Source of the DNA: Pseudothermotoga hypogea DSM 11164 = NBRC 106472
GTDB lineage: Bacteria; Thermotogota; Thermotogae; Thermotogales; DSM-5069
Reading direction: 5' to 3'
DNA: 64,000 bases
NCBI RefSeq assembly: GCF_000816145.1
Contig: NZ_CP007141.1
Coordinates: 744,001 to 808,000, forward strand
Position 1 is the stretch's first letter. Every line of letters starts with the position of its first letter. The notes beneath the pieces were generated by a model. The model did not search any database and had not been told where the DNA came from. It was given only the letters and a program-made list of their open reading frames with translations. Made by a program: the position numbers and the translations under genes. Below are positions 9,035 to 37,025 of this stretch, one piece after another.

Positions 9035-9052
9035 ACTTGCGAGGTGATCGTT

Positions 9053-10870
9053 ATGAGGTGGCTGAAAGAACTCACGATCCTTTTGGTCATCGCACTCGTG
9101 GTCCTTGGCTTCACTCAAAGTTCCATCAAAACGCTCGGTATGGGTCCGGTCACATCGATAGCCTTCTCCCCAGATGGCAAGTACATGGCCGCCGGCAGCA
9201 TCGCCGTTCATCTGATCGACACCAACACCTGGCAGGTGATCCGCACCTTCGAGGGGCACAAACTTCCAGTTTTCAGCGTATCCTTCAGTCCAGACGGAAA
9301 AAAACTTGCCAGTGGTTCTTGGGACAGATCCATAAAACTCTGGGACGTGGCAACGGGTAAGGAGATACTCACCCTCAAAGGCCACAAAGACGAGATCTTC
9401 TCTGTAGCTTTCAGCCCCGACGGCAAGGTCCTTGTTTCAGCATCCGCGGACGAAACGATAAAGCTTTGGAACGTGAGCAACGGCAATGAAATCCGTACGT
9501 TGACCGGACACACAGAGGGTGTTTCCCACGTTGTCTTCAGTCATGATGGTAAGTTCCTCGTGTCCAGTTCGGGCGACAAAACGATCAAGGTATGGAACGC
9601 TTCAAAGGGTAGTTTGGTTCGAACCATCACAGGACACGAAGGAGCCGTGTACCACGTTGCGATCAGTAAAGACGACAAGCTCATTGCCTCATGCTCCGAC
9701 GATGGTACAGTCAGACTCTGGAACATGAAAACGGGTAAGTTAGAAAAAACGCTTGAATCCGGTAGCCAAATGATCTTCGCCATCTCTTTCAGCCCAGACG
9801 GTAAGGTTTTGGCATGCAGTCGTGAGGACGGAACGGTAAATGTGTGGGATGTTGCGAGTGGCAAACAGATCGTACAACTCACCGGCGGTGTCAGTTACGC
9901 CTACTCGGTCACCTTCAGTCCCGACGGCAAGCTCATTGCGTCAGGCAGTGAAGATGGATCTATCAGGGTCTGGAAGGTGGGAAACTGGGAACTCTCGCGA
10001 GAAATGCATTACGGTAGCAACGCCCCAGTTCGCGTCGTTGCGGCCAGTCCAGATGGCAAGACGATCGCGTCCGGTTCCGATGACTACAAAATAAGACTTT
10101 GGAACATTGAGACAAACCAGTTGATCCGTACCATCGAAGGTCACACCAGCACCTTGAACACGATCTCGTTCAGCCCAGACGGCAAGTTGCTCGTTTCCGC
10201 GTCGGACGATGGAACGGTGAGAGTTTGGGAGGTGAACTCAGCTAGACTCGTCCGCGAACTCAAATCTGAACAGGAACACTTCTACGCTGTCATGAGTCCC
10301 AACGGCGAACTGATCGCCTCTCCGGGGAATTTGATCGACATTGAACTTTGGAGTACATCAACAGGTCAGCTACTTAGAACTTTGAAAGGAGGCTTCGAAA
10401 CGTTCGTATGCCTATCTTTCTCACCGGACAGCAAGTTGCTCGTAGCCGGTTCCAATGATTCGTACGTTGTCAACGTCTGGAACGTAGAAACCGGTAAGTT
10501 GATCCACAGCATCCCGGCTCATGACCGTTCCGTCACGACGGTCGCCTTCAGCCCAGACGGGAAAACCTTCGCCTCTGGTTCGCACGACAAAACGATCAAG
10601 ATTTGGGAGACAGCGACTGGCAAGATGATCGCAACACTCGTGGGACATGCATCGAGCGTCACGTCAGTCTGTTTCAGCCCTGATGGGAAGACCTTGGCGG
10701 CTGGCTCGCTCGATGGAACCATCAGACTTTGGGACGTCAGCTCGGGCAAAGAGATCAGCTTGCTTGTGGGGCACGGGGAAGCAGTCAATTCTGTCTGTTT
10801 CAGCCCAGATGGAACGCTGCTCTTCTCCGCTTCCTTCGACAGGACAGTCAAGGTATGGAAAGTGAAGTGA
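9053..10870 (+). CDS. Exported WD40 protein with 14 repeats
   Basis: 605 residues; ATG 9053 is placed by GAGGTGAT at 4-base spacing. A signal peptide or anchor (LTILLVIALVVLGFTQS) is followed by 14 consecutive WD40 repeats with the pattern 'SPDGK-LASGS-D-T-LW-V-TGK'. Most of the inter-blade GH dipeptides are also clear. Fourteen repeats fit two seven-bladed propellers. Repeats 10 and 11 are the most divergent (SPNGELIASPGN). No enzyme domain is attached, so the protein probably acts as a binding scaffold outside the membrane. Repeat-to-repeat identity is high, as in WD40 genes that keep duplicating blades. It is the last gene of the operon; a related, truncated gene lies at 15275. Confidence 0.93.
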   Translation: MRWLKELTILLVIALVVLGFTQSSIKTLGMGPVTSIAFSPDGKYMAAGSIAVHLIDTNTWQVIRTFEGHKLPVFSVSFSPDGKKLASGSWDRSIKLWDVATGKEILTLKGHKDEIFSVAFSPDGKVLVSASADETIKLWNVSNGNEIRTLTGHTEGVSHVVFSHDGKFLVSSSGDKTIKVWNASKGSLVRTITGHEGAVYHVAISKDDKLIASCSDDGTVRLWNMKTGKLEKTLESGSQMIFAISFSPDGKVLACSREDGTVNVWDVASGKQIVQLTGGVSYAYSVTFSPDGKLIASGSEDGSIRVWKVGNWELSREMHYGSNAPVRVVAASPDGKTIASGSDDYKIRLWNIETNQLIRTIEGHTSTLNTISFSPDGKLLVSASDDGTVRVWEVNSARLVRELKSEQEHFYAVMSPNGELIASPGNLIDIELWSTSTGQLLRTLKGGFETFVCLSFSPDSKLLVAGSNDSYVVNVWNVETGKLIHSIPAHDRSVTTVAFSPDGKTFASGSHDKTIKIWETATGKMIATLVGHASSVTSVCFSPDGKTLAAGSLDGTIRLWDVSSGKEISLLVGHGEAVNSVCFSPDGTLLFSASFDRTVKVWKVK

Positions 10871-10925: not shown

Positions 10926-12602
10926 ATGAAAAGGGTGATGGTTCATCTGGTGATGGTTTGTGTGGTTCTGCTTCTCTTTGGATGTTTCAAACCTGCGCCG
11001 CAGAATCCACCGAGTCCTCCGCCCACTCAGCCGCCTACACAGCCACCAACTCAGCCACCCAGTCAACCACCGGGTGAGGAACCGAGCTAACCAACTGGTT
11101 ACACGATCCAAGGTGTGGTGAAAAAATGGAACGGTGAACCACTTCAAGGTGTGACGATCAGCGCGGGTGGAGTCAGCACAACGAGTGATTCACAAGGACA
11201 TTGGTCCATCTCAGGTTTGAGTGGAACCGTCGTGGTGAGTGCGCAGTTGCAGAACTACTACATCGTGGTGGATGGGACGAATTATGAAACTCAGATCGAA
11301 GCGTCCAACGAGAGGACAATAAACTTCACAGATTATTCTGAAACAGAAGAGTTCGGCGGTGGTAATGGCACGCAAGAGAATCCATACATCATAGTGAACG
11401 TGCAACAGTTGCTGAATATGGCGAACCATGTCCCAGACAGCTCAGATTCAACACCTCTGTATTTCACGCAGATAAGGGATATCGACTTGAACGACGCTGT
11501 TGTACCCAGAAATATATCTTCAGATCCACAGCCAAACTGGACACCACTTGGAAGATCTGATCAACCATACATCTGCGTGTACAATGGCTCGGAGTTTTCA
11601 ATAAAGAACATGGTCGTGGTCGACGATGGTTCACTGAGCAACGGCTTCTTCCACGCTATTGAGAACTCAACTATTCGGAACGTCATCTTCGAGAACGCCA
11701 CTGTCGTCGCTACGAAAACTTTTACCAACACGGGAATCCTGGCTGGCTCGGTTTACTCAGGCTGCACGATAGACAACGTCGTTGTTCGGAACTCTCGCGT
11801 GATCATTAGGGTTGCGAATCCTGATTTTATAGGCGGTCTCGTGGGTGCAACTTACGATTCTACCATCACGAATTGCAGGGTCGATGAGTTGACGATCGAA
11901 GCCGAGTACGATGTCAGCATCGGTGGTGCAATCGGTGGTTTCGTTGGTTCTGCTCAGGATTCTTCTTCTTTCGAGGAAAATCTTTTGAGAACGACAACGA
12001 TCAAAGGTAAGTTCTCTCAACTTGCTGGCGGGTTCGTGGGACTTGCAGAAAACTCTTTCTTTGAGAACTGTGATCTCGATACGCTGCTCATGCAGGACTT
12101 GCGCTCGACTGTTGGTGGCTTCGCTGCTCATTTATCGCATTCTTCGTTTGTCGATTGCGATGTGGTGGAAGCAACGCTGTCGGCCAGTGATTGTCAATAC
12201 GCGGGCGGGTTCGTGGGATTCTCACGAACAAACAACTTCACAAACTGCACTTTCAAAGGTCGTGTGGAAGTTGGAACATCGAATTCCCCACAGGCATACA
12301 TCGCCGGCTTCGCCGCTTTGGCTTATGCGAACACGGATAACAGCAACTTCGAAAGCTGCAAAGTCTTGTCGGGCTCTTGGCTCATCCTAACGGCCGACCG
12401 AGCGGGGACTAATTATATTTGCGGATTGATAGGATATGGTTATGGCTACGGTAATGATGCAAAACTCATTCTCGACAACAGTTTCGTCCGTGCCAAGTAT
12501 ATCACTCCCGACGGGAACACAAATGTTATAAGTTCGGCACCCTTAGGTTTTTTTGGTGATTGGGTTCAAAATGGTTCGCCCGATGCGCAATGGGAGCAGT
12601 AG
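10926..12602 (+). pseudogene. GLUG-repeat lipoprotein broken by an in-frame stop
   Basis: ATG 10926 (RBS GAGAGGAGG) starts a lipoprotein signal (VCVVLLLFGCFKP) and a Pro/Thr/Gln linker (PPTQPPTQPPTQPPSQPP). The frame then meets TAA at 11088 (GEEPS-stop). The same frame continues at once with PTGYTIQGVVKKWNGEPLQG, matching the intact paralogue at 12788. So this is one gene interrupted by a nonsense codon rather than two genes; a GTG at 11115 could restart translation without a signal. Downstream are about eight GLUG-type repeats (GGFVG-x6-FENC). It also lacks the last 60 or so residues of the paralogue (no counterpart of CYWDNQ or the WAINAVKNDGYPYLRW end). Probably a decaying duplicate. Confidence 0.8.
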
Positions 12603-12681
12603 GATTGCGAGATTTGGTAACAATTAACGCATAGTCAACGGCGAGAAGACTGGACCGAACAGTTCCTGACCGTGAGGTTTG

Positions 12682-12784
12682 CTCTCCTCCTCTCAGGTGA
12701 ATTTCTGTTCGATCGAAGTTTCTAATCGTTTTTTAACGATCTTGGTTCAATATAGAGAAGTTCCACACCCTGAGAGGAGGAGAG
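12682..12784 (+). promoter_or_regulatory. Long-range hairpin masking the RBS of the second GLUG gene
   Basis: CTCTCCTCCTCTCAGG (12682-12697) is the exact reverse complement of CCTGAGAGGAGGAGAG (12769-12784), which contains the whole Shine-Dalgarno sequence just before ATG 12788. In RNA this gives a 16-bp perfect stem closing a 71-base loop. Inside the loop a second hairpin ATCGTT-TTTT-AACGAT (12725-12740) is visible. Either this is a translational switch (RBS occluded unless the left arm is bound, cut or untranscribed), or a promoter inside the loop removes the left arm. No homologue of a known riboswitch class was recognised. Confidence 0.55.
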
Positions 12785-12787
12785 TTC

Positions 12788-14671
12788 ATGAGAAAGTGGC
12801 AGATTCTGTTGGTTTCATCGCTGGTTTTGTTTTTGCTGTTCAGTTGCGCCGCACCAGTTGTACCAGGGGAACCTTCGACTTACACGATCCAAGGCGTCGT
12901 GAAGCTGTGGAACGACACACCATTGCAAGGTGTCACGATCAGTGCGGGCACGAAGACGGCGACTACCGACGCGAACGGGACTTGGACGATCGCAGATTTG
13001 AGTGGTGCGGTCACGGTGAGAGCGCAGAACACTGATTATCACATCGTCATCGCGGGCACTGTACAAACCACCAAGAACGTTTCGAACGCTTCGACGATCA
13101 ACTTCACAGCCTATTCCGAAACCGAAGAGTTCGGTGGCGGGTACGGTACACAAGACGATCCTTGGATCATTGTGAACGTGTGGCAGTTGGACAACATGAG
13201 ACACTACGTCGATCCATCCACACCGAGACATTACAAACAGATGAGAGATCTGGACTTGAACGATCTGATAGCAAGGGTCACTCCGACCGAAGCGAACTGG
13301 ACACCCGTCGATTCGATGGGTCCAGACAAACCCTTCAACGGAAGCTACAACGGGATGGGATTTTCCATAAAGAACATGGTGGTTTTGACGGGCAACAACA
13401 CCAGCGACAGATACTCTGGTTTCTTTGGGCGCCTCTTTGAGGCAACGATCACCAACGTGGTCTTCGAGAACGCTCAGGTTGACTATGCAGATGCCTTCGA
13501 CGCGGGTGTTCTGGCTGGAAGGATCGACGACAGCACCATCGATAATGTGATCGTGCTCAACTCGAGAGTCTCTCAAGCTTCCTACATGGGTGGGCTCGTG
13601 GGGTTTGCCAGCTCTTCGACCTTCAAGAACTGTTCGGTTCAAGTCATCCTCAACTCACCACAGGCTAACCCATCGTTCTACGTGGGAGGGTTCGTAGGTG
13701 ATTCGAGTTTTTCGAACTTTCAAAACTGCACCGTGCGATCGAGCGCGATAACCGGTAAGTCTACAAGAATCGGAGGCTTTGCGGCAAATTCAGACACGAG
13801 CGTCTTTCAGAATTGTCGTTTCCAAGGTACCATAGAGGATGTTACAGCAACCTACGTTGGTGGTTTCGTGGCCTATGCTGAACAGGACGAAGATCTCAGT
13901 GTGAACGTCTTCGAAGATTGCGCTGTGTCGGCTTCTTTGAGCGCGCAGAGGGATACTTCGACGATGGATATGGTCAGAATAGGTGGCTTCGTTGGTTTTA
14001 TCGACGCAGTGAAGAGAATTTCTTTCAAAACCTGCGTTGTTCAAGCGGACATAGAAGTTCCGCACTACGGTTTCACTGCGGGTGGCTTCTTCGCAGAGAT
14101 TAGCGGGCTCAACACATTCCACCAGTGTGGCTTTCAAGGTTCGATCACGGGCAATTCTGAGGAATTTTCCGACATAGGTGGTTTTGGTGGTTTTGCTTAC
14201 AATCCAGCAACTGGTGAAGTGAACATTCAAGAATGTTACGCGAGGTTCGAAGTCAACGCAGATTCGAACGCCAGGGTCGCCGGATTTTTGAGCATGACGG
14301 ATGGAAACAACATCACGATCAAGAACTGCTACGCGAAGGGTTCAACGAGTGCTCAAGCACAATCGGCAGGTTTTTTGAGGATGAACACATTAGATCAAGT
14401 TCCAGACGTGTCAAAAAACTACGTCGCCGTTTCGAACACCGATCATGGTTTTCTGTACAACTTTTCATCTTCTTCGCTTCAAACTCCTCATTGCTACTGG
14501 GACAACCAACTGACCAGTACGATCCAAGACCACTCAACGGCCGAAGGCAAGGGCACCAGCCAGATGAAGACGCAGAGCACTTATTCAACTTGGGATTTCA
14601 CAAATGTTTGGGCGATCAACGCTGTGAAAAACGATGGTTATCCCTATCTCAGGTGGGAAGACGGTATTTGA
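12788..14671 (+). CDS. GLUG-repeat lipoprotein
   Basis: 627 residues. The lipoprotein signal peptide ends LLFSCAAPV. Residues about 35-100 form a carboxypeptidase-regulatory-like/SdrD-B-type domain (YTIQGVVKLWNDTPLQGVTI through GTWTIADLSGAV). The rest is a run of GLUG repeats (GGFVG-x5-FKNC, repeated about ten times), which form right-handed beta-helix or solenoid structures in adhesins and surface proteins. The C-terminus has the usual cap (CYWDNQL, WDFTNVWAINAVKNDGYPYL). Probably an outer-envelope binding or adhesion protein. It is a tandem duplicate of the broken gene at 10926. The RBS GAGGAGGAGAG is fully covered by the upstream inverted repeat. Confidence 0.9.
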   Translation: MRKWQILLVSSLVLFLLFSCAAPVVPGEPSTYTIQGVVKLWNDTPLQGVTISAGTKTATTDANGTWTIADLSGAVTVRAQNTDYHIVIAGTVQTTKNVSNASTINFTAYSETEEFGGGYGTQDDPWIIVNVWQLDNMRHYVDPSTPRHYKQMRDLDLNDLIARVTPTEANWTPVDSMGPDKPFNGSYNGMGFSIKNMVVLTGNNTSDRYSGFFGRLFEATITNVVFENAQVDYADAFDAGVLAGRIDDSTIDNVIVLNSRVSQASYMGGLVGFASSSTFKNCSVQVILNSPQANPSFYVGGFVGDSSFSNFQNCTVRSSAITGKSTRIGGFAANSDTSVFQNCRFQGTIEDVTATYVGGFVAYAEQDEDLSVNVFEDCAVSASLSAQRDTSTMDMVRIGGFVGFIDAVKRISFKTCVVQADIEVPHYGFTAGGFFAEISGLNTFHQCGFQGSITGNSEEFSDIGGFGGFAYNPATGEVNIQECYARFEVNADSNARVAGFLSMTDGNNITIKNCYAKGSTSAQAQSAGFLRMNTLDQVPDVSKNYVAVSNTDHGFLYNFSSSSLQTPHCYWDNQLTSTIQDHSTAEGKGTSQMKTQSTYSTWDFTNVWAINAVKNDGYPYLRWEDGI

Positions 14672-15224: not shown

Positions 15225-15274
15225 TCACGGATCGTGTTAGACTACGTTCGAAGCTCATCCAAGGGGGAATGAAG

Positions 15275-15895
15275 ATGAGATCGTTGAACGTACTGATTCT
15301 GGTACTTGTGTTTGTTTGTAGCACTTTTGCACTCGTTCAGGACATCACAAGGCCGGTCCTCTCAATTGCAGCTGGACCTGTTGTTTCACTCGTGATCAGT
15401 CCAGATTCGAAGTACATCCTCGTCGGCACTCAAGATGGAAACGTGAAGATCTTAGACGCACAGACCAATCAACAGGTGGGTGAGACGATACGCTGTGGTG
15501 CGACCGTCTACGGTCTTGCCATAGAAGCGAGCGGAAAGTACTTCGTCACGGGCTTGGGAGACGGTTCGATCATTGTCTGGGACTTCGAGACGAGACAGAA
15601 GATTCGAAGTTGGTCGGCGCACAACTTCACGGTTCGTTCTGTAGCCATCAGCCCAGATGGGAAGTACATAGCTGCCGGATCGTACGACTCGACAGTCTCG
15701 ATCTGGGAGCTCGAGACGGGCGAACTCGTGCAAACCTTGGTCGGTCACAAAGACTGGGTTCACACCGTCGCCTTCACACCTGACAGAAAATACTGCCTCG
15801 CAAGCCTTTCTTCTTCAGGGGGATGGGTAAGAGGCTTGATTTTTATTAGCACTTGTGTTATCATCATAGCGTGGAAACTATGCCATTCGGCATAG
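15275..15895 (+). pseudogene. WD40 protein gene truncated by a mobile element
   Basis: ATG 15275 (MRSLNVLILVLVFV) lies 7 bases after AAGGGGG; ATG 15269 is too close to the RBS. A signal peptide is followed by three complete WD40 repeats and the start of a fourth (WVHTVAFTPD). At 15785 the reading frame enters the mobile element, and the last 37 residues (starting RKYCLASL) are element-encoded. The sequence after the element resumes with GGCGTGGTTCTG, which would restore 'FTPD-G-VVL', the WD40 'SPDG' motif. This supports insertion into a longer gene, but the frame then closes within a few codons, so the remaining 3' part is gone. Relative of the 9053 gene. Confidence 0.82.
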
Positions 15896-16055
15896 GTATC
15901 TTGGGAAGAAGTTCCAAGTAGTAGCGGGATTGGCACCCGTCAGAGGTGTAAGGTTAAACCACACCTCTGTGGCCATGGAGTATCAAATGCTCCATGGAAG
16001 GCAGCCTAAAGAGCTGCTAAGAATCCCATCCCCTTCAGGGGATTGGGAGTGTCAA
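15785..16055 (+). mobile_element. Short IS200/IS605-derived element (MITE-like), copy 1
   Basis: 271 bp. The left end begins AGAAAATACTGCC directly after TGAC, and the right end finishes GGGAGTGTCAA. It matches the second short copy at 29432 almost base for base, and matches both ends of the tnpB element at 34906-36527. tnpA and nearly all of tnpB are missing. The junction (AACTATGCCATT joined to CGGCATAGGTATC) is identical in both short copies, so they descend from one deleted ancestor that moved in trans. A left-end subterminal hairpin (CAAGCC/GGCTTG) and a right-end hairpin (TCCCC/GGGGA) are kept, as expected for recognition by a Y1 transposase. It interrupts the WD40 gene. Confidence 0.88.
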
Positions 16056-16075
16056 GGCGTGGTTCTGCCTGGACG
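15895..16075 (+). ncRNA. Candidate stand-alone TnpB guide RNA (omega RNA), copy 1
   Basis: Five consecutive hairpins are visible by eye: 15900-15918 (CTTGGGA/TTCCAAG, one G-U), 15941-15969 (CAGAGGTGT/ACACCTCTG), 15973-15997 (CCATGGAG/CTCCATGG), 16001-16017 (GCAGC/GCTGC) and 16025-16047 (CCCATCCCC/GGGGATTGGG, one bulge). The element ends at 16055, so about 20 following bases would be the guide. That TnpB guide RNAs come from the 3' end of tnpB plus the right end is established; expression of this solitary copy is inference. Confidence 0.42.
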
Positions 16076-29343: not shown

Positions 29344-29431
29344 CGCGACCCCTCCTTTTGTGGGATGACCGATTATTGCACGAACTAATTAGAAAATCGT
29401 TAGAAGGTTTCTTCAACACACCGAGGTTGAC

Positions 29432-29700
29432 AGAAAATACTGCCTCGCAAGCCTTTCTTCTTCAGGGGGATGGGTAAGAGGCTTGATTATTAGCACTTGT
29501 GTTATCATCATAGCGTGGGAACTATGCCATTCGGCATAGGTATCTTGGGAAGAAGTCCCAAGTAGTAGCGGGATTGGCACCCGTCAGAGGTGTAAGGTTT
29601 AAACCACACCTATGTGGCCATGGAGTATCAAATGCTCCGTGGAAGGCAGCCTAAAGAGCTGCTAAGAATCCCATCCCCTTCAGGGGATTGGGAGTGTCAA
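29432..29700 (+). mobile_element. Short IS200/IS605-derived element (MITE-like), copy 2
   Basis: 269 bp, beginning AGAAAATACTGCC after TGAC (29428-29431) and ending GGGAGTGTCAA. The same internal junction as copy 1 (CCATT joined to CGGCATAGG) shows common descent. It lies in an intergenic space, so no gene is broken. The differences from copy 1 are single bases and one short indel near 29494. Confidence 0.88.
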
Positions 29701-34905: not shown

Positions 34906-35067
34906 TTGACACTCCCAATCCCCTGAAGGGGATGGGATTCTTAGCAGCTCTTTAGGCTGCCTTCCACGGAGCATTTGATACTCCATGGCCACAGAGGTGT
35001 GGTTTGAACCTTACACCTCTGACGGGTGCCAATCCCGCTACTACTTGGGACTTCTTCCCAAGATACC
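34886..35067 (-). ncRNA. Candidate TnpB guide RNA of the full element
   Basis: The 162-bp right end (35067 down to 34906) overlaps the tnpB 3' end and folds into the same five hairpins as the short copies. Hairpin 1 (CTTGGGA/TCCCAAG) and hairpin 2 (CAGAGGTGT/ACACCTCTG) are perfect. The guide would be the flanking bases from 34905 downward (GCTCAAAGCTTTACGC), that is, within the truncated ABC ATPase gene. Production of such RNA from the tnpB 3' end is known for the family; here it is inferred. Confidence 0.5.
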
Positions 35068-36169
35068 TCTGCCAGATGTTTATCGCTCCTACTCCGTCCC
35101 TGTGATACCTAAATCCACAACTTTTACATTCATAGTTGCGACCAACCGCATGATTCTTGCTACCACATACAGGACAGACCTGACTCGTATATTCTTCCGA
35201 AGCAAGTTTCACTTCAATTCCCAGTAGCTGTGCTTTGTAGGTTATCATGTCCACCATCTTTCTGAAACACCACTGATGAACTTTTTGATTAAAGTTATCG
35301 TTCCCTTCTACACGCTCTCGAATATTTGTGATATCACCAATTACAATAGTCCCATACCCTTTCTGTAAACACATCTTAAGAAAGTTGCTGGTTATCTTGT
35401 GCAGTATGTCCGTTATTTGATGTTTTGTTCGTTTCAGCATTCGCTGCTTTGCTTTCAACAGTTTTCTATACCTCTTGGAACCTTTCTTGCATTTGCTTAA
35501 CGTTCGCTGAAAGTCTGCCAACTTCTTGTTGCGATATCTGATTAGACTGTTGAGAATACCACCGTGATACGAAATCACTTCAGAGCCATCAAAGCAAGTT
35601 ATTGGACGAAGTATGCCAAGGTCTACAGACATAACTTCAACAGACTGTTTCTTCTTATGCTCATTCTTCACCTCTATTGCAAGGTGAAGATAATATTTCT
35701 CAGCCTCATACACAAGTCTTACTTGCCTAATTGTTGTACCGGCTGGCAGTGTCGTTTGTATCAAAATTGGCTCCTGACTACTACCCATTGAAAGTCTCAG
35801 AACCCCTTCTGGTGAAAGTTTTATAGCAGTATCTTTCCAGATGAACGGCATAAACCTTTTCTTCTTATGTGGTGGTTTCAACTGTGGGTTTGTCTTGACT
35901 GCAGTAAAGTAACTGTTAAGCGCCTGAAAGTATTGCTGAACTATAGCCTGTTTGGAATGGGTATGGATATTGATAGTGCTACTCCAACGCAGGATATATT
36001 TTTGTGTTGCTCCTGGTGAAAGCCAGAAACCTTTCTTGCTTTTTACTTTCTTGACCAGCGACATGGTTTTGTTGTAGATTCGACCAGCGAGCCTGTTCAG
36101 CTCAGAACACAGAGGATACAATTCTCTCGGAACAGGCACTTTGTAAGTTCTGACTATATATCTTGACAT
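34952..36169 (-). CDS. tnpB: TnpB, RNA-guided nuclease of the IS element
   Basis: 405 residues from ATG 36169 (MSRYIVRTYKVPVP); a longer frame to 36241 only overlaps the tnpA remnant. N-terminal helical/beta recognition region, then the RuvC core: Asp183 in MSVDLGILRP, the second block GTIVIGDITNIRE (275-285), a zinc ribbon CPVC-x12-CKSC (332-351) and Asp358 in YHRDGVGAINIW. The usual RuvC-II glutamate position holds Gly278 followed by Asp279. Glu325/Glu326 before YTSQVC or Glu285 could substitute. TnpB cuts DNA next to a short motif under guide RNA control and keeps IS copies in the genome. No disabling mutation is visible. Confidence 0.93.
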   Translation of the reverse strand: MSRYIVRTYKVPVPRELYPLCSELNRLAGRIYNKTMSLVKKVKSKKGFWLSPGATQKYILRWSSTINIHTHSKQAIVQQYFQALNSYFTAVKTNPQLKPPHKKKRFMPFIWKDTAIKLSPEGVLRLSMGSSQEPILIQTTLPAGTTIRQVRLVYEAEKYYLHLAIEVKNEHKKKQSVEVMSVDLGILRPITCFDGSEVISYHGGILNSLIRYRNKKLADFQRTLSKCKKGSKRYRKLLKAKQRMLKRTKHQITDILHKITSNFLKMCLQKGYGTIVIGDITNIRERVEGNDNFNQKVHQWCFRKMVDMITYKAQLLGIEVKLASEEYTSQVCPVCGSKNHAVGRNYECKSCGFRYHRDGVGAINIWQRYLGKKSQVVAGLAPVRGVRFKPHLCGHGVSNAPWKAA

Positions 36170-36439
36170 TCTTCGATGTACCTCCTGATAGTCTCTTCTG
36201 AAACCGTTCCTGCTGAGCCAACATAATATGTTCTGCTCCATAATCCTTCCTTTGTTCTTAGATGTGGAAACTTCTCAAGAAGTTTTTTAGAAGACACTCC
36301 TTTAAACAAATTGGCTATTTGAGCTGGGGATAAGCGCGGTGGTGCTGAAACAAAAGATGGACATGGTCTGGCTGAACTGATAGAGATAGGACTTCAATCC
36401 CATGTTTTTTGGCGTTGTTTTTCTTAATTGCATAGTTTT
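36154..36439 (-). pseudogene. tnpA: tnpA (Y1 transposase) remnant
   Basis: Joined frames read NYAIKKNNAKKHGIEVLSL, then SVQPDHVHLL, then VSAPPRLSPAQIANLFKG, and end at RRYIEECQDI (stop 36154). This is the C-terminal two thirds of a Y1 transposase, with the HUH histidines in HVH. A one-base loss right after HVHLL shifts the frame, and roughly 35 N-terminal residues are missing. The catalytic Tyr helix region (around SEETIRRYIEE) survives but cannot be made in frame. Its 3' end overlaps tnpB by 16 bases, the usual arrangement. A TATAAT (minus strand, 36451-36456) still lies upstream. Confidence 0.88.
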
Positions 36440-36518
36440 CACCCTATACAATTATAACACATGCTAATAACGAACAAGCTCCTTACCCATCCCCTGAAGG
36501 AGAAGGGCTTGCAGAACA

Positions 36519-37025
36519 CTATTTTCTGTCAGTTGAATGTATCGAGAACTGGAGTTGAAATCTACCTTTGTAAAAGCGATCCTTTATTCTTAAGAGTTCT
36601 TCAAAGAACTGGTCGCAACCGACCGGTGCCACCGTTGAAATGGATGGAATCAGATTGTCGTAAAATGACAGTTCTTCCAAGACTTCGAGGACATGGTGGT
36701 TGAAAGCCGGTTCTCCGACCCTCGCGAACTGCACCTTGAACTTCTTAGTGTTCACTTTCCCGGCCGGGTACCGTTTTTTCACCATGAAATCTATCTGCTC
36801 GAGTATTTCGTCTTTGTCCAGAACACCGGCGTACGATCCACCCGCATCGCACATCTTACACTTCACCGGACACCCGTTGAGCGTTGAGACTATGAGTACC
36901 CACTTTTCTTCCCTCGGAAAGGGAGGTTGGAGGGCCTCAACAAACTCGACCAAATTTCCTTTCGAAGTTTCCCCAAGATAAACGATCGCGATGTCCTCTT
37001 TTCCAAACTGGGCCAATATCCTCAC
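36519..37025 (-). pseudogene. Radical SAM protein truncated by the IS
   Basis: GTG 37025 overlaps the TGA of the upstream flavoprotein gene (GTGA) and has an RBS (GAGAGGTG). The cluster motif CPVKCKMC is followed by 'DAGGSYAGVLDKDEI' and 'FARVGEPAFNHHVLEVLEEL', an arrangement like the RlmN-type radical SAM branch (GEP motif). The frame enters the IS left end after QFSIHSTD and stops three codons later (36519). The family then expects 'SLHA'-like continuation, so about half of the protein is lost. Its partners upstream suggest a small redox operon. Confidence 0.85.

What the first reader, a model, noticed from the sequence alone, without database searches (positions are those of the whole stretch)
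15895..16055. Five consecutive hairpins in the shared right end, with pairing kept between copies
In all three copies the right end folds into the same series of stems. Hairpin 1 is CTTGGGA/TCCCAAG in two copies and CTTGGGA/TTCCAAG (G-U) in copy 1. Hairpin 3 is CCATGGAG with CTCCATGG in copy 1 and CTCCGTGG (U-G) in the others. Hairpin 2 is perfect in two copies and has one mismatch in copy 2. Such pairing-compatible changes suggest selection on RNA structure, beyond the single terminal hairpin that the transposase needs.
Basis: seen in the sequence. Interest (0 to 1): 0.65.

Follow-up and report, generated by a model that had tools for sequence, protein, structure and literature searches.

The report
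Guide-RNA gene ending a TnpB transposon
The row of hairpins is the guide-RNA scaffold (omega RNA) that a bacterial jumping gene uses to steer its DNA-cutting enzyme TnpB; two of the three copies in the window are stripped-down elements that keep the RNA but have lost the enzyme gene.

Summary
The three copies are right ends of one IS200/IS605 element family with about 15 right ends in this genome. Copy 3 encodes TnpB, an RNA-guided nuclease. Copies 1 and 2, with two more elsewhere, are ~275-bp derivatives joining left end to right end. The hairpins sit where TnpB omega RNA (reRNA) lies: over the 3' end of tnpB and up to the transposon terminus.

In 45 homologous right ends, 94% of predicted pairs form, against 38-44% when partners are slid. 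Compensatory double changes number 23, against 2.5 expected on the tree. The pseudoknot matches the one solved in ISDra2 omega RNA. One of its bases is a synonymous alanine codon position that covaries through all four Watson-Crick pairs with a non-coding base 115 nt downstream. Stems 2 and 5 have no separate covariation support.

Most interesting are the solo omega-RNA elements, bacterial counterparts of Fanzor 'ghost' loci. RNA expression and nuclease activity are untested. A new member of a known kind.

The parts
15781..15784 (+). TGAC target site of copy 1, presumed TAM; the element proper starts at 15785
   Evidence: All 13 copies with a left end begin TGAC|AGAAAATA or a close variant; empty sites are continuous across TGAC| in relatives
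15785..16055 (+). Copy 1: non-autonomous IS200/IS605 derivative (left end joined to right end, no tnpA or tnpB)
   Evidence: interrupts a WD40 ORF whose frame is restored as ...TPDG... when the flanks are joined
15836..15864 (+). Promoter-like site in the left end, TTGATT-17-TATCAT with TG before the -10, pointing into the omega RNA
   Evidence: consensus match only; not tested
15896..16055 (+). omega RNA (reRNA) scaffold of copy 1
15900..15918 (+). H1
   Evidence: 4 compensatory double changes against 0.16 expected, p=0.001
15924..15940 (+).
   Evidence: 4 doubles against 0.22, p=0.001; corresponds to stem 1 of ISDra2 omega RNA (PMC10097598)
15930..15935 (+). Pseudoknot 5' strand TTGGCA
   Evidence: 99.3% of cells paired; 3 doubles against 0.14, p=0.001; broken pairs 2 against 5.4, p=0.01
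15941..15969 (+). H2
   Evidence: 97% of cells paired but covariation not significant (p=0.36)
15973..15997 (+). H3
   Evidence: 2 doubles against 0.24, p=0.024
16000..16018 (+). H4; the tnpB stop codon lies in its loop in most autonomous copies
   Evidence: 8 doubles against 0.73, p=0.001
16025..16047 (+). H5, the right-end subterminal hairpin expected to be bound by TnpA as DNA
   Evidence: no covariation support, p=0.46; GAAT precedes it and the element ends TCAA
16050..16055 (+). Pseudoknot 3' strand TGTCAA = 3' terminus of the element
16056..16075 (+). Predicted guide of copy 1 (host flank directly 3' of the element)
   Evidence: inference from ISDra2 (PMC8612924); not tested
29432..29700 (+). 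Copy 2: non-autonomous element; omega RNA 29540-29700
34906..36527 (-). Copy 3: element with intact tnpB and damaged tnpA; omega RNA 34906-35066
34952..36241 (-). tnpB, 429 aa
   Evidence: NF040570 guided_TnpB 195 bits, cut-off 100; PF07282, PF01385; predicted fold matches TnpB and Cas12f structures 8h1j, 8j12
36169..36431 (-). Damaged tnpA (Y1 transposase) of copy 3
   Evidence: PF01797 in two broken pieces; intact tnpA present in three other copies

Best explanation
The hairpin series is the scaffold of the omega RNA (reRNA) of an IS200/IS605-family TnpB. Shown: a ~160-nt structured region covers the last ~40 codons of tnpB and runs to the exact 3' end of the element; it has six stems plus a pseudoknot that ties the loop of the second stem to the terminal TGTCAA; the element inserts 3' of TGAC. 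Inferred: the transcript continues into host DNA, and the first ~16-20 nt after TCAA act as guide; TnpB with this RNA cuts TGAC-guide, the site left when TnpA excises the element, so the element is restored by recombination and not lost. Copies 1 and 2 (and two more) lost both genes but keep left end, promoter-like site and the whole omega RNA. They are most likely moved by TnpA in trans and may supply their own guides to TnpB in trans.
For: Same right end in tnpB-bearing and gene-less copies. Copy 3 protein is guided_TnpB by NCBIfam and matches Pfam TnpB domains, and its predicted fold matches TnpB/Cas12f. Position over the tnpB 3' end and the right end matches ISDra2 (PMC10097598). Structure conserved with compensatory change in 45 homologues. 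Pseudoknot topology as in ISDra2, where -5..-3 pair with -103..-105 in the loop of stem 1. The pseudoknot base at 15935 is the third position of an Ala codon (GCA/GCC/GCG/GCT) that pairs with the non-coding base at 16050 in all four Watson-Crick combinations. A covariance model finds the RNA in 23 of 103 genomes of the phylum. Intact Y1 tnpA in three copies. Exact ends shown by a radical-SAM gene that has no insertion at the TGAC| joint in five relatives. Frameshifted copies (L097, L104, L122) keep most stems although the protein tail is destroyed.
Against: No expression data, so transcription, processing and TnpB binding are not shown. The canonical RuvC-II glutamate of TnpB is Gly in the whole clade, so nuclease activity is uncertain, although such rearranged clades are known (PMC10278001). 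No Rfam family matches. H2 and H5 lack covariation support. A strict per-pair APC-G test passes one pair only. A 56-bp left-end/right-end element without the RNA exists once in a relative, so the RNA is not always kept.
Confidence: 0.92

Rival explanations
1. The hairpins are DNA structures for the transposase only: TnpA binds subterminal palindromes at the ends, and the other stems are by-products.
For: H5 is a classic right-end hairpin preceded by GAAT with terminal TCAA (sequence; IS608 comparison from general knowledge). H5 shows no RNA-type covariation.
Against: H1, H1b, H4 and the pseudoknot lie up to 150 nt inside the element and covary. G-U pairs are common, which fits RNA better than DNA.
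Confidence: 0.04
2. Coding constraint: the stems are an accident of a conserved TnpB C-terminal tail.
For: H1, H1b, H2, H3 and part of H4 are in the tnpB reading frame.
Against: A synonymous Ala codon position covaries with a base beyond the stop codon. Gene-less and frameshifted copies keep the stems. H5 and the 3' strand of the pseudoknot are non-coding.
Confidence: 0.01
3. Solo copies (1, 2) are inert deletion derivatives: they move because TnpA recognises their ends, and their omega RNA is a passenger that is never used.
For: Few independent solo types are known (this genome's type, G096 L188, possibly G091 L189). A relative holds a 56-bp element without the RNA. Copy 2 has a broken pair in H2. 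Only one founding deletion in this genome.
Against: Two solo types with different deletion junctions (G000 and G096) keep a promoter-like site and complete omega RNA. Fanzor 'ghost' omega RNAs without a protein gene are functional (PMC10432273).
Confidence: 0.45
4. TnpB of this clade is not a nuclease (RuvC-II Glu replaced by Gly) and the RNA guides binding, for example repression.
For: Glu to Gly in all clade members. Three copies (L030, L034, L036) also lack 11 residues, EVKLASEEYTS, that hold a conserved Glu.
Against: The two Asp of RuvC are invariant (D207, D382), and a Glu 47 residues downstream is conserved in the clade. RuvC-II rearrangements are a known TnpB class for which inactivity is not assumed (PMC10278001).
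Confidence: 0.2

Closest known systems
ISDra2 TnpB omega RNA / reRNA (Deinococcus radiodurans; PMC8612924, PMC10097598)
   Same: Overlaps the tnpB 3' end and right end; pseudoknot between the loop of an upstream stem and the 3' end next to the guide; terminal right-end hairpin; insertion 3' of a short fixed motif
   Different: Motif TGAC, not TTGAT; an extra 5' stem (H1) and a different set of middle stems (H2-H4 in a row, where ISDra2 has stem 2 enclosing stem 3); TnpB lacks the canonical RuvC-II Glu
Fanzor 'ghost' elements of Spizellomyces punctatus (PMC10432273)
   Same: Elements with both ends and the omega RNA but no nuclease gene, present beside full copies
   Different: Eukaryotic, much more numerous (134), omega RNA function shown; here bacterial, four copies, function untested
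Non-autonomous IS200/IS605 derivatives (MITE- or PATE-like; general knowledge)
   Same: Short elements with IS ends and no transposase, moved in trans
   Different: These keep the complete omega RNA and a promoter-like site, more than TnpA is expected to need
RuvC-II rearranged TnpB clades (RII-r, PMC10278001)
   Same: Canonical RuvC-II Glu missing, both RuvC Asp kept
   Different: Which RII-r clade this belongs to was not determined

Membership tests
TnpB omega RNA (reRNA) | Lies over the 3' end of tnpB and the transposon right end | tested here: met
TnpB omega RNA (reRNA) | Conserved stem-loops with covariation | tested here: met
   H1, H1b, H4, pseudoknot p about 0.001 each, H3 p=0.024; H2 and H5 not significant
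TnpB omega RNA (reRNA) | Pseudoknot pairing the 3' end next to the guide with an upstream stem loop | tested here: met
   (by covariation; no structure solved)
TnpB omega RNA (reRNA) | RNA is expressed, bound by TnpB and carries a guide from the flank | not testable with these tools
   no RNA data at hand
RNA-guided endonuclease TnpB | TnpB domain architecture (RuvC core and zinc ribbon) | tested here: met
RNA-guided endonuclease TnpB | Canonical D-E-D RuvC catalytic residues | tested here: not met
   D207 and D382 kept; Glu of RuvC-II is Gly (VIGDI) throughout the clade; TnpB clades with rearranged RuvC-II are described in PMC10278001, so this does not exclude TnpB membership but leaves activity open
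IS200/IS605 transposon family | Y1 HUH transposase TnpA | tested here: met
   PF01797 intact in three copies, up to 136.8 bits against cut-off 23; HVH motif read
IS200/IS605 transposon family | Insertion 3' of a fixed short motif without target duplication; subterminal palindromes | tested here: met
   TGAC in 13 of 13 left ends; empty sites in five relatives
Fanzor-like ghost / solo omega-RNA element | Both ends and full omega RNA, no nuclease gene, mobile as a unit | tested here: met
   Four copies with the same internal deletion at four different TGAC sites; use of the RNA not testable here

The most novel reading that the evidence does not exclude
Copies 1 and 2 and their kin are mobile solo guide genes in a bacterium: promoter plus omega-RNA scaffold, which pick up a new guide at each insertion and recruit in trans a TnpB with a rearranged RuvC-II site, so that gene-less elements are protected from loss and give TnpB an expanding set of targets.
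Probability: 0.4. Interest if true: 0.6.

Novelty: new member of a known kind. Interest (0 to 1): 0.42.

Why it matters
The window offers a clean comparative case for TnpB guide RNA. A pseudoknot known from cryo-EM of ISDra2 TnpB is seen here in natural covariation, across a coding/non-coding boundary, in Thermotogota and Firmicutes. If the solo copies work, bacteria have their own version of Fanzor ghost elements, and it becomes testable whether gene-less transposons borrow TnpB for their own retention.

Tried and rejected
Rfam with the gathering threshold and with permissive E-values: no usable match. Covariation from this genome's copies alone: not significant. Strict APC-G scan with a tree-based null: one pair only, low power because 14 of 45 rows are near-identical; I then counted same-branch double substitutions against the same kind of null. 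Both results are reported. Coding-only and DNA-only explanations rejected. Terminator or attenuator: no terminator-like site on the + strand at or within the right end. Literature searches for bacterial omega-RNA MITEs found no direct report in the held library, which is not proof of absence.

Full report
OBSERVATION. Copy 1 occupies 15781-16055, copy 2 29428-29700 (both +), copy 3 36531-34906 (-). The right-end RNA of copy 1 folds at -74.1 kcal/mol against -46.6 +/- 4.0 for shuffles (z -6.8).

WHAT THE COPIES ARE. Searching the own genome (2.17 Mb, one contig) gives 14 full right ends plus decayed ones; a covariance model gives 18. Ten of the 14 belong to elements with tnpB or its remains; four (copies 1 and 2, L027, L028) are ~275-bp elements in which the left end is joined directly to the last ~46 codons of tnpB. 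Copy 3 carries an intact TnpB of 429 aa and a broken tnpA; three other copies have intact Y1 tnpA. All 13 copies with a left end begin TGAC|AGAAAATA. Joining flanks restores host frames: a WD40 repeat (...TPDG...) for copy 1 and a radical-SAM gene for one flank pair. The radical-SAM joint has no insertion in five relatives. Hence insertion is 3' of TGAC, without duplication, and the element ends ...GTGTCAA: the IS200/IS605 pattern.

STRUCTURE ACROSS HOMOLOGUES. Right ends were collected from Thermotogota, Thermoanaerobacter and Caldicoprobacter: 45 distinct sequences. RNAalifold found most of the stems and, unasked, a pairing of TTGGCA with the terminal TGTCAA. With a sixth stem (H1b) and this pseudoknot, 94.4% of cells form standard pairs. 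Sliding the partners by 1-3 columns gives 38-44%. Both-side changes are 141 cells against 35. Counting substitutions on a FastTree tree, 23 same-branch compensatory pairs occur against 2.5 expected, with at most 9 in 1000 simulations. H1, H1b, H4 and the pseudoknot each have p about 0.001 (the floor of 1000 simulations), H3 0.024, H2 0.36, H5 0.46. The number of pair-breaking changes over the whole structure is not lower than expected (76 against 81, p 0.26). A strict all-against-all APC-G test with the same kind of null passes one pair only, so single pairs should not be over-read.

THE PSEUDOKNOT. Position 15935 is, in coding copies, the third base of a conserved alanine codon. It is A, C, G or T, and the partner at 16050, beyond the stop codon, is T, G, C or A respectively in 44 of 45 sequences. 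Protein constraint cannot produce this. ISDra2 omega RNA has the same topology: bases -5 to -3 pair with -103 to -105 inside the loop of stem 1, next to the guide (PMC10097598). Here -6 to -1 pair with about -126 to -121.

WITHIN-GENOME SIGNAL. Among the 14 copies in this genome, 7 of 11 stem variants keep the pair; random transitions would keep 54% (p 0.37).

MECHANISM. By analogy with ISDra2 (PMC8612924; PMC11870625), TnpB with this RNA should cut TGAC followed by the flank copied into the guide, that is the empty site left after TnpA excision, so that the element is restored by repair. Shown here: anatomy, ends, target motif, conserved structure. Inferred: expression, guide use, cutting. 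TnpB of this clade has Gly at the RuvC-II glutamate position but keeps both Asp; a Glu 47 residues later is conserved. Rearranged RuvC-II clades are known (PMC10278001). The AlphaFold model (mean pLDDT 76) matches TnpB and Cas12f folds, but coordinates could not be measured, so active-site geometry was not checked.

SOLO ELEMENTS. The four gene-less copies share one deletion junction yet sit at four TGAC sites, so they moved after losing the genes, presumably with TnpA in trans. They keep a promoter-like site pointing into the RNA (TTGATT-17-TATCAT with TG in copy 1). A second solo type, with a different deletion junction, a left end, a TACAAT box and full omega RNA, occurs in G096 (L188); its tnpB remnant is frameshifted (L104). 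Fanzor ghost loci are the closest precedent, and their omega RNAs work (PMC10432273). Against use of the RNA: few independent cases, and a 56-bp element without it in G059.

VERDICT. A TnpB omega RNA, a new member of a known kind. The solo copies and the natural covariation of the pseudoknot are its points of interest.

Noticed in passing
window 1-34905 and 34906-36531; G000:C1:704978-780531: Copy 3 and another copy of the element (L033, ~705-706.7 kb, same strand) have exchanged flanks: radical-SAM N-part lies beside copy 3 and its C-part beside L033, and the start of an ABC ATPase gene appears split in the same way. This is as if the ~72-kb block between them had entered as a circle by recombination between element copies.
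   Followed up: partly
L030, L034, L036 (G000:C1 ~1599, ~1882, ~195 kb): Three tnpB copies share a deletion of 11 residues (EVKLASEEYTS) just before the zinc ribbon, removing the conserved Glu that may replace the missing RuvC-II Glu.
   Followed up: partly
window 34952-36241: TnpB clade with RuvC-II Glu replaced by Gly (VIGDI) in the Thermotogota, Thermoanaerobacter and Caldicoprobacter members examined.
   Followed up: partly
L190 / G059:C1:302298-302353: A 56-bp micro-element: left-end hairpin fused to the right-end terminus, single copy in that genome.
   Followed up: yes
L041 (Thermoanaerobacter thermocopriae): TnpB 83% identical to copy 3, closer than the homologues in other Thermotogota genomes (up to ~75%), suggesting transfer between Thermotogota and Firmicutes thermophiles.
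   Followed up: no
window 15269-15895 and 9044-10870: Copy 1 interrupts a WD40-repeat gene; a longer WD40-repeat gene lies ~5 kb upstream.
   Followed up: no
window 11099-12948: Two neighbouring ORFs (11115-12602, 12788-14671) share an 80% identical 69-nt stretch near their starts, probably tandem paralogues.
   Followed up: no
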